Assembly: GCF_000270285.1 (NCBI RefSeq)
Contig: NC_015738.1
Span: forward strand, 1,426,001 to 1,490,000
DNA length: 64,000 nucleotides
Direction: 5' to 3'
DNA from: Eggerthella sp. YY7918
Lineage (GTDB): Bacteria; Actinomycetota; Coriobacteriia; Coriobacteriales; Eggerthellaceae
In this document: in pieces, positions 34,042 to 58,819 of the stretch
Position numbering within the stretch: position 1 is the stretch's first letter
How the letters are laid out: the number at the start of each line of letters is the position of its first letter
The notes under the pieces: generated by a model
Databases searched by the model: none
What the model saw: the letters and a program-made list of their open reading frames with translations, nothing else
What the model was told of the DNA's origin: nothing
Program-made: the position numbers and the translations under genes

Positions 34042-34083
34042 ATACCCTGTCATCAGCTCAACGCTGGTGGCGGGGTATTTATT
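34042..34083 (+). terminator. Terminator after the nfeD-SPFH operon
   Basis: ATACCCTGTCATCAGC and GCTGGTGGCGGGGTAT form a long imperfect stem, followed by TTATTT. Confidence 0.8.
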
Positions 34084-34176: not shown

Positions 34177-34206
34177 TTGACAAATGACGCTTGGGGGGGG
34201 GATACT
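34177..34206 (+). promoter_or_regulatory. Promoter with a nine-G tract in the spacer
   Basis: A consensus -35 TTGACA (34177-34182) and a -10 like GATACT (34201-34206) are separated by 18 bases that end in an unbroken run of nine G (34193-34201). Slippage in the tract would change the spacer by single bases, with eight G giving the optimal 17. The gene downstream is a surface protein, the usual client of this kind of switch. Confidence 0.6.
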
Positions 34207-34263
34207 CTTTTCAATGCCTTAAAAATGATTTGAGTTTCGCTCGAAGAAACGGAGAACGAAAAC

Positions 34264-35700
34264 ATGGAACGGTTGCAAAAGACGAGCGTCTATCTGGTCG
34301 CCTGCTCGTTGATGGTTTTGTGCGCGCTTGTCCTGTGTGCGCTTGCGCCCCGAGTAGCATGGGCTGCTTCGGCGGGTACGGTACAGGAATTTGAAACATT
34401 GGTAGACGATCCGAGCGTTTCTTCTATCGAGCTGACAGCAAGTCTTGATTTTACTTATCCGGTGGACAAGTATAAAAACTATGACCTCAGCAATAAGAGC
34501 GTGGACCTCTCGGGTTTCACTATTACGGCGAACAATGCGGCCATCTGTTTTGTCGGCGAGAATTTTGTGCTGCAAAACGGTACGTTTTCCTGCAATGGCG
34601 CAAGCTCCACTTCCTTTGGAAGCTACGCTCTCTTTATAGGCGACAACGCAACTACCGACAATGCGGTGATACAGAATGTGACCACGCAGGGCGGCATTAA
34701 TGTATTTAACGCAACTAACGTAACGTTGCGCGATGTGAATGTCACAGGTACGAAATATTATGCCGTTTGGTGCGACGAGGGCGGGCAGGTGAGTATTGAG
34801 AGCGGTACCTTTTCTTCAAATGGCGTTGCAGTTTTAGCTGGTGTTTCCAAAGAGGACGATGCCTTGATGAAGGTGCAAGGCGGTACCTTCATCACAAATG
34901 GCGCAAATAGTCAGCCACTCGTGCTCAAAGGAAACTATATGGAGCCTGTGATATCGGGTGGCACGTTCGACACAAACGAAGTGGTTGAGTATGTCCCCGT
35001 CGATTCGGCTGCCTTATGGGATGGCGGTTCCATCTCCGTCCTTGATAAAGCGACCGTTGAATCGCAAACAGTCTGTGCGGTCGACGGTGTTCACTATAAG
35101 ACTGCGGCAGAAGCCTCATCAGCAACGGGCGGCGCTCCTCTCTCTTACAAAGTGACGTTAGGAGGAGAAGGCGTGGCCGAGACGAATGTTTTTGTAGCTG
35201 ACGGCAGCCTGATGGCGGCTCCAGATCCGGCGCCTTTGCGCGAAGGCTATACGTTCCTCGGCTGGTTTAAGGGTGACAACGTGTGGAAGTTCGATACGGA
35301 TACCGTTACCGGTCCGCTGGTACTCACGGCAAAATGGGAGCCTCATATCTACAAGGTTACGTTTGATGACGGCATAGACGAAACCGCTGATACCGTAGTC
35401 GAAGTCAAGCATGGCGAGTCTATTACCAAGCCTGTCGACCCTGTTCGCAAGGGGTATACGTTTGCTGGCTGGTTCTCCGATAAAGCGTTTACTCAGGCGT
35501 ATGATTTCTCTGCTCCTGTTACCGGAAACCTGACACTGTATGCATCGTGGACTCAGGAGGGTGCGGTCCAAAACAGCACAGCAAAGGCTCTTCCTCCGAC
35601 GGGCGATACGACTCCGATAGTGCCCCTTGCTCTCGTGTGCGGCATTGTGGTCATAGGGGTAGGCGCAAGCCTTGTTTACCGCAAGGATGCTCGCAGATAA
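34264..35700 (+). CDS. Sortase-anchored surface protein with Listeria-Bacteroides repeats
   Basis: 478 residues. A Sec signal peptide (about 1-36, ending APRVAWAAS) is followed by a region rich in Asn, Thr and short beta motifs (about 40-270, NATNVTLRDVNV-type, likely a right-handed beta helix). Two Flg_new/InlB-B repeats follow (REGYTFLGWFKGDN and RKGYTFAGWFSDKA with KPVDPVRKG). The end is a sorting signal: LPPTG, a hydrophobic helix and RKDARR. A sortase should link it to the cell wall. Expression may be phase variable because of the upstream G9 promoter. Confidence 0.92.
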   Translation: MERLQKTSVYLVACSLMVLCALVLCALAPRVAWAASAGTVQEFETLVDDPSVSSIELTASLDFTYPVDKYKNYDLSNKSVDLSGFTITANNAAICFVGENFVLQNGTFSCNGASSTSFGSYALFIGDNATTDNAVIQNVTTQGGINVFNATNVTLRDVNVTGTKYYAVWCDEGGQVSIESGTFSSNGVAVLAGVSKEDDALMKVQGGTFITNGANSQPLVLKGNYMEPVISGGTFDTNEVVEYVPVDSAALWDGGSISVLDKATVESQTVCAVDGVHYKTAAEASSATGGAPLSYKVTLGGEGVAETNVFVADGSLMAAPDPAPLREGYTFLGWFKGDNVWKFDTDTVTGPLVLTAKWEPHIYKVTFDDGIDETADTVVEVKHGESITKPVDPVRKGYTFAGWFSDKAFTQAYDFSAPVTGNLTLYASWTQEGAVQNSTAKALPPTGDTTPIVPLALVCGIVVIGVGASLVYRKDARR

Positions 35701-35733: not shown

Positions 35734-35767
35734 AACGCCCTCCTTTGCCTTTGGTGAAGAGGGCGTT
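35734..35767. terminator. Terminator after the surface protein gene
   Basis: AACGCCCTC and GAGGGCGTT form a perfect 9-bp stem around a 16-base loop; T-rich DNA follows on the + strand. Confidence 0.75.
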
Positions 35768-35895
35768 CTCTCGTGTTTTCTTGGTGTTTCTCCTGTGAGG
35801 CTAGACAAGGTTCGTGCTAGAACGGAAAATGTGCTGCGACCGTATCCGCGGCAGAGTATGTCGCGTTCTGTGAAATAGCAAAGGACGTGTTGAGC

Positions 35896-58722: not shown

Positions 58723-58819
58723 GGAGATGGATGGGTCCTGGTGGACCCCGCGGCCTTCAAAGCCGTCGTGAGGCGTGCAGAACGTCTCGGGTGTGTTCGA
58801 TTCGCACGCATCTCCGCCA
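58723..58819 (+). tRNA. selC: tRNA-Sec (anticodon TCA)
   Basis: A 97-base tRNA including encoded CCA. The acceptor GGAGATG pairs with CATCTCC (seven pairs; the eighth, G58730 opposite G58808, is unpaired as written). The D-stem has six base pairs (GGGTCC-TGGT-GGACCC), the anticodon loop is CTTCAAA with TCA at 58757-58759, the variable arm is long (7 bp, GAGGCGT / ACGTCTC) and the T-arm has a TTCGATT loop. Long extra arm, 6-bp D-stem and TCA anticodon are diagnostic. It lies between the radical SAM gene and convergent selB. An open frame running through it is spurious. Confidence 0.96.

What the first reader, a model, noticed from the sequence alone, without database searches (positions are those of the whole stretch)
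34177..34264. Nine-G tract inside the promoter spacer of a sortase-anchored surface protein
A consensus TTGACA is followed by an unbroken run of nine G (34193-34201) and then a -10 like element, just ahead of an LPPTG surface protein. Single-base slippage would move the spacer between 17, 18 and 19, which is the classic design for on/off or graded phase variation of adhesins. No other homopolymer of this length is seen in the window.
Basis: partly seen in the sequence, partly recalled or inferred. Interest (0 to 1): 0.75.

Follow-up and report, generated by a model that had tools for sequence, protein, structure and literature searches.

The report
Slippage-prone G-run promoter of surface protein
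A run of nine Gs sits between the two halves of the likely promoter of a cell-surface protein, where copying slips could turn the gene up or down; it is one of thirty such runs in this genome, and the same promoter layout recurs in related bacteria.

Summary
In detail: TTGACA (34177-34182), G9 (34193-34201), a -10-like GATACT (spacer 18; TACTCT with spacer 20 is possible), then a secreted LPPTG protein (34264-35700). One G9 in 64 kb is weak evidence alone: 19 of 100 shuffles contain one. The genome context is strong. Exact G/C runs of length 7-12 number 16, 1, 19, 5, 4, 2. Of 30 runs of 9 or more, 15 lie in or beside genes with a sortase-anchor-like end, against 0 of 12 examined runs of 7-8. 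Others mark LCP ligases, a GGDEF-EAL enzyme, a LuxR regulator and an ABC-transporter promoter. The four c-di-GMP-I riboswitches found precede tract-bearing surface genes. The promoter layout occurs in 22 of 138 family genomes, 38 matches against 4 for the reversed pattern, and one near-identical promoter pair differs by one G in the tract. Best reading: a slippage (phase-variable) promoter, porA-like in principle, inside a large poly-G phasome. Length variation at this very site, its transcription start and any expression effect were not tested. No tool names the organism; I take it for a Coriobacteriia (recalled).

The parts
34042..34078 (+). terminator-like hairpin ending the upstream band-7 gene, so the surface gene needs its own promoter
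   Evidence: 16 pairs, T-rich tail; 3 terminator-like sites found against a shuffle mean of 2.0, so weak alone
34177..34182 (+). -35 hexamer TTGACA, exact consensus
34193..34201 (+). G9 tract in the spacer
34201..34206 (+). -10 candidate A, GATACT, spacer 18
34203..34208 (+). -10 candidate B, TACTCT, spacer 20; in the position of the TAnnnT hexamer of the related promoters
34251..34254 (+). GGAG, likely ribosome-binding site
   Evidence: sequence; inferred
34264..35700 (+). 478-aa secreted surface protein: beta-helix-like part (just under Pfam's cut-off) and two List_Bact_rpt (Flg_new) repeats
35590..35604 (+). LPPTG codons, followed by a hydrophobic stretch and a basic tail
35759..35772 (+). 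weak terminator-like hairpin after the gene

Best explanation
The G9 tract is a hypermutable spacer in the promoter of a sortase-anchored, adhesin-like protein. Replication slippage adds or removes G, changes the -35 to -10 distance (17/18/19 if GATACT is the -10; 19/20/21 if TACTCT is), and so should shift transcription between low, middle and high, giving a mixed population in which only some cells carry the protein. The site belongs to a genome-wide poly-G/C phasome of about 30 tracts aimed at the cell surface and its regulation, and its promoter layout recurs across the family and order. Shown from sequence: the tract, its place, the genome-wide pattern, the recurrence, and one-G differences between near-identical promoters elsewhere. 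Inferred: slippage at this site, the effect on transcription, and the biological role.
For: Own genome: exact runs of length 7-12 number 16, 1, 19, 5, 4, 2. 15 of 30 runs of 9 or more lie in or beside genes with an anchor-like end, against 0 of 12 runs of 7-8 (11 of the 16 G7 and the single G8; Fisher p 0.003); such genes plus 300 nt each cover about 2.6% of the genome, and the excess stays below 1e-7 even if they covered 10%. Four further tracts sit in spacer position of plausible promoters: 493488 (TTGAGT-18-TATCAT), 1187705 (TTGACG-18-TACTAT), 1179965 (TTGACC-15-TATACT) and 612879 (TTGCGT-18-TACTAT by eye). The pattern TTGA-N7-13-G8-N0-6-TAnnnT gives 38 matches (37 sites) in 22 of 138 family genomes against 4 in 3 genomes for the reversed pattern, and in the order 57 of 395 genomes, 85 matches against 7 by my count of the table. 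Genes after the 37 sites have a hydrophobic N-terminus in 24 of 37, against 12 of 44 window genes; some end in LAKTGD, LAPTGD or LPQTSD. G105 and G106 share a promoter with one substitution and one extra G in the tract over 200 nt; G118 and G119 also differ by one G. G082 has six such promoters on one contig, four with G10 and two with G11. The surface gene is missing between the band-7 and def genes in five relatives (by eye), so it came with its own promoter.
Against: One G9 in the window is expected in about one shuffle in five. In the promoter scan with shuffled flanks the window ranks fifth of 60 tests (p 0.017), and the top row lies inside a coding gene. The -10 is ambiguous. Many related promoters have spacers of 19 or more in the assembled state (20 of 37 by first TAnnnT), which is long for a sigma-70 promoter. 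No second strain or reads were seen, so a fixed G9 here is not excluded. Same-genus G001 and 116 of 138 family genomes have no match to the pattern. High-GC relatives have many G9 runs that look like chance in coding DNA.
Confidence: 0.84

Rival explanations
1. An ordinary promoter with a fixed, neutral G9 in the spacer: chance or drift, no switching.
For: A single G9 in 64 kb is within shuffle expectation. No strain or read variation could be tested. G9 is the shortest class of the long runs.
Against: Bimodal run-length distribution with a gap at 8; enrichment at surface genes; recurrence of the layout over the reversed control; natural one-G differences.
Confidence: 0.1
2. The tract does act through spacing, but on a regulator's contact rather than on the -35/-10 distance of a sigma-70 promoter, as a tract upstream of a promoter would.
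For: In two LCP-ligase genes of this genome and one of G001, a G11-12 tract lies 21 nt upstream of a 17-nt-spaced promoter (27 nt in G008), so this second layout exists here (spacing counted by eye).
Against: At the window site the exact TTGACA lies upstream of the tract and the -10-like hexamers directly after it.
Confidence: 0.04
3. Assembly or sequencing artefact in the homopolymer.
For: Homopolymers are error-prone; the technology behind this assembly is unknown.
Against: Runs of 9-12 concentrate at particular gene classes, and runs at LCP genes sit at matching places in other genomes.
Confidence: 0.02

Closest known systems
Neisseria meningitidis porA promoter (poly-G between -35 and -10)
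   Same: Number of G in the -35/-10 spacer of a surface-protein gene; in porA one G more or less changes transcription (passage of the review PMC3899988).
   Different: Gram-positive-type sortase-anchored product; expression effect untested here; no evidence of common descent, so an analogue in mechanism only.
Bifidobacterium breve UCC2003 sortase-dependent pili with G tracts
   Same: Sortase-dependent surface structures of a gut actinobacterium switched by replication slippage in G tracts; the authors say that other G tracts lie in genes or in promoter spacers (PMC9187656, passages and section 24).
   Different: The demonstrated switches there are in coding sequence; the promoter-spacer tracts are only mentioned.
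Campylobacter poly-G/C phasome
   Same: Tens of tracts per genome with a peak at 9 (53%) and 10 (26%) repeats (PMC6321876, passages); here 19 and 5 of 30.
   Different: [quoted passage not shown] here 7 of 18 coding tracts. Targets here are largely sortase-anchor-like proteins.
Phase-variable c-di-GMP control in Clostridioides difficile
   Same: Phase variation reaching c-di-GMP signalling (PMC11868660 section 8).
   Different: Here poly-G tracts in a GGDEF-EAL gene and on genes behind c-di-GMP-I riboswitches; a link between the two is only inferred.

Membership tests
porA-type promoter-spacer phase variation | homopolymer of 8 or more between the -35 and -10 of the gene | tested here: met
   the exact -10 is uncertain
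porA-type promoter-spacer phase variation | tract length varies between isolates or cells at this site | not testable with these tools
   no reads and no second genome of the species; one-G differences seen only in related promoters
porA-type promoter-spacer phase variation | transcription depends on tract length | not testable with these tools
   needs transcript mapping and reporters
porA-type promoter-spacer phase variation | surface-exposed product | tested here: met
   secretion-type N-terminus and LPPTG end by sequence only
sortase-anchored surface protein | LPxTG-like motif, hydrophobic stretch, basic tail at the C-terminus | tested here: met
   own alignment and motif layout
sortase-anchored surface protein | match to a curated anchor model | tested here: not met
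   no anchor model at E 0.001 in Pfam or NCBIfam; these short models often miss variants (recalled)
sortase-anchored surface protein | sortase gene in the genome | not tested
multi-locus simple-repeat phasome | excess of long tracts over the genome's own length decay, tied to particular gene classes | tested here: met
c-di-GMP-I riboswitch leader | RF01051 match between promoter and gene | tested here: not met
   none at the window site; present at 493488 and 612879

The most novel reading that the evidence does not exclude
This order of (probably gut) actinobacteria carries a large poly-G phasome comparable in size to that of Campylobacter, in which a recurrent slippage promoter drives adhesin-like proteins, in places stacked directly on a c-di-GMP-I riboswitch, while a GGDEF-EAL enzyme of the same genome carries its own tract: random switching and c-di-GMP sensing would act on the same surface genes. 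It would bear on the question, raised in PMC11868660, whether multi-locus phase variation is restricted to pathogens.
Probability: 0.45. Interest if true: 0.8.

Novelty: new member of a known kind. Interest (0 to 1): 0.62.

Why it matters
The site alone is a textbook design in an untested organism. [quoted passage not shown] If the tracts switch, isolates of these bacteria would differ in surface make-up within a culture, which bears on adhesion, phage sensitivity and the reproducibility of strain studies. The stacking of slippage promoters and c-di-GMP riboswitches is directly testable.

Tried and rejected
Chance as the sole explanation: not excluded by the window alone, rejected on the genome-wide run-length gap. 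A close relative of the window protein: the named-genome scan gave 6 loci, each matching only within query residues 289-449, and 60 relatives gave matches that I read as repeat-domain matches, the listed ones 53% identical or less apart from the self-hit (list cut), so no ortholog with which to compare the tract. A riboswitch at the window site: none. A structured leader: the 84-nt leader folds no better than shuffles (z 1.59). The promoter scan with shuffled flanks ranks a site inside a coding gene first, so its p-values are not used as proof. The pair G095/G097 (G10 against G11) is not a clean length change: a flanking base differs and the spacer length is the same. The anchor profile A1 was built from 12 tract-linked genes, so 12 of its 21 hits are circular; of the other 9, 3 are tract-linked and 6 are not, and one of the 6 (751528) is a mid-frame match that lies upstream of a control G7. 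In high-GC relatives G9 runs are common and many look like chance. Literature: searches returned no paper; one search returned 8, of which I read passages of one (E. lenta prophages); some searches showed 40 of 1,361, 20 of 24, 12 of 1,601 and 10 of 12 papers, none on poly-G phase variation in Coriobacteriia as far as the listings show. Subscription papers are mostly not held.

Full report
Observation. The window holds TTGACA at 34177-34182, nine G at 34193-34201 and GATACT at 34201-34206 with a spacer of 18. No other G/C run exceeds 6 and no A/T run reaches 8. GATACT shares its first base with the run and is a 4-of-6 match; TACTCT at 34203-34208 is the alternative with spacer 20. The gene at 34264-35700 encodes 478 aa with a secretion-type N-terminus, a weak beta-helix match, two List_Bact_rpt repeats and an LPPTG end. 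A terminator-like hairpin stands upstream at 34042-34078. In five family members (G001, G008, G004, G022, G016) the band-7 gene is followed directly by a deformylase-like gene, by eye; the surface gene with its promoter is thus an insertion relative to them.

Is it more than chance? Under dinucleotide shuffles a G9 appears in 19 of 100 windows, so the window alone proves little. The whole genome (3.12 Mb, one contig) does better: overlapping counts for G7, G8, G9 are 127, 80, 49, which with the listed places give exact runs of 16, 1, 19, 5, 4, 2 for lengths 7 to 12. Chance runs should thin out steadily; these form a second peak at 9.

Where the 30 runs lie. Eighteen are in or at the start of coding frames: 15 in frame (142623, 315508, 326443, 595543, 882789, 1024935, 1101056, 1228307, 1796825, 1828148, 1933599, 2213985, 2216225, 2235427, 2580561) and 3 where the long frame begins only at the run (390075, 1120603, 1996609), which I read as an off state. 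[quoted passage not shown] Five are in promoter-spacer position (the window's 1460193, plus 493488, 612879, 1187705, 1179965). Two lie upstream of an LCP-gene promoter (758150, 1797126). Five are unclear (758400, 1151722, 1674402, 2343191, 2777273). Protein families include LCP ligases (two genes), GGDEF-EAL-PAS, LuxR, a winged-helix/nucleotidyltransferase/choline-kinase-like fusion, CoA-transferase III, ABC ATPase, subtilase, papain-like with lectin and PASTA domains, and List_Bact repeats.

Link to surface anchors. A profile of 12 anchor-like ends finds 21 places at E 0.1 or better in the genome. Fifteen belong to tract-linked genes; the long frames of 326443, 2213985 and 493488 reach their anchors in the same frame. 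Twelve of the 15 are the profile's own rows; of the other 9 hits, 3 are tract-linked. One of the 15 runs (1151722) lies on the 3' side, about 43 nt past the stop. Twelve runs of 7-8 examined the same way (11 of 16 G7 and the one G8; the other 5 G7 were not listed) show 0, though one lies at a LuxR-type gene, one inside a surface-like frame, and one 177 nt past a frame that has a weak mid-protein profile match. Fisher p is 0.003 for 15 of 30 against 0 of 12 and also for 14 of 30.

c-di-GMP. RF01051 finds four c-di-GMP-I aptamers in the genome (150 of 282 first-look candidates were scored, so more are possible). All four found precede surface genes with a tract: 141116 before the 142623 gene, 493503 and 612893 directly after spacer tracts, 882367 before the 882789 gene. 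There is none at the window site.

The layout elsewhere. TTGA-N7-13-G8-N0-6-TAnnnT occurs 38 times (37 sites; one G015 site is counted twice) in 22 of 138 family genomes, the reversed pattern 4 times in 3. In the order: 57 of 395 genomes, 85 against 7 by my count of the table, with a few sites listed twice (it includes the same family genomes). By the first TAnnnT, spacers are 14 to 24 with the peak at 19 (12 of 37) and 25 of 37 at 17-20. The longest frame starting within 350 nt has a hydrophobic N-terminus in 24 of 37, against 12 of 44 genes of the window and 18 of 105 frames in relatives' loci; frames were picked by length, and some picks are doubtful. Pfam on 10 of the 37 shows cell-wall binding repeats, GH25 with choline-binding repeats, MBG/YDG, List_Bact and LRR_5 repeats, one C4-dicarboxylate transporter, and four with no family.

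Natural length differences. G105 and G106: 201 columns, 198 identical, one extra G in the tract, one substitution, one end gap. G118 and G119: one G, 180 of 201 identical. G059 and G337 show G8 and G9 in matching short flanks (listing only). G082 has six copies on one contig, four with G10 and two with G11; four of the six genes show the anchor-like end in the fetched DNA. The G095/G097 pair is not a clean case. LCP-gene promoters of this genome (two), G001 and G008 carry tracts of 11, 12, 11 and 13 G upstream of a 17-nt-spaced promoter (spacing by eye).

Mechanism. Slippage at the tract would move the -35/-10 distance one base at a time. That one G matters for transcription is known for porA (review passage, PMC3899988). 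Here the step from length to expression is inferred. Many assembled copies elsewhere have spacers of 19-20, long for sigma-70; they may be low states, or a poly-G spacer may have another optimum. I cannot tell.

Known or new. Poly-G promoter switching and poly-G phasomes are known kinds (porA; B. breve, which also mentions promoter-spacer tracts, PMC9187656 section 24; Campylobacter, PMC6321876). I found no report for this class, which saw only parts of the long lists. So the site is a new member of a known kind; the size of the set and its overlap with c-di-GMP riboswitches are the interesting parts. That the organism is an Eggerthellaceae-like Coriobacteriia is my recollection from gene content; no tool names it.

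Noticed in passing
L009 1117-1200, L013 2504-2587, L015 2394-2477; G000:C1:882367-882451: Four c-di-GMP-I riboswitches, each ahead of a surface gene that carries a G/C tract; in two the aptamer begins within a few nt of the promoter tract.
   Followed up: partly
L016 2651-2661 and 2901-2909; L025 3326-3337 and 3627-3638; L119 2001-2009 and 2298-2308: LCP (LytR-CpsA-Psr) genes with two tracts each, one upstream of the promoter and one in or near the start of the gene; the pair of tracts is also present in a same-genus genome.
   Followed up: partly
L012 2576-2584: A tract at the start of a GGDEF-EAL-PAS protein; three G001 tracts (L071, L074, L077) also sit at GGDEF genes.
   Followed up: partly
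L018 2936-2944: In-frame tract in a fusion of winged helix, nucleotidyltransferase and choline-kinase-like domains, recalling phase-variable phosphocholine genes (recalled).
   Followed up: no
L142, L143 (G082 contig C70): Six poly-G spacer promoters on one contig, each ahead of a secreted, partly anchored paralogous protein.
   Followed up: partly
L019 2557-2565: A coding poly-C tract about 50 codons before the end of an LANTGD protein; slippage there could switch anchored and released forms.
   Followed up: no
window 58723-58815: A selenocysteine tRNA gene (RF01852, 71 bits).
   Followed up: no
L021 2723-2731: A G9 run 43 nt past the stop codon of a very long anchored protein (open frame 2671 aa), after the terminator of the gene on the other side; role unclear.
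   Followed up: no
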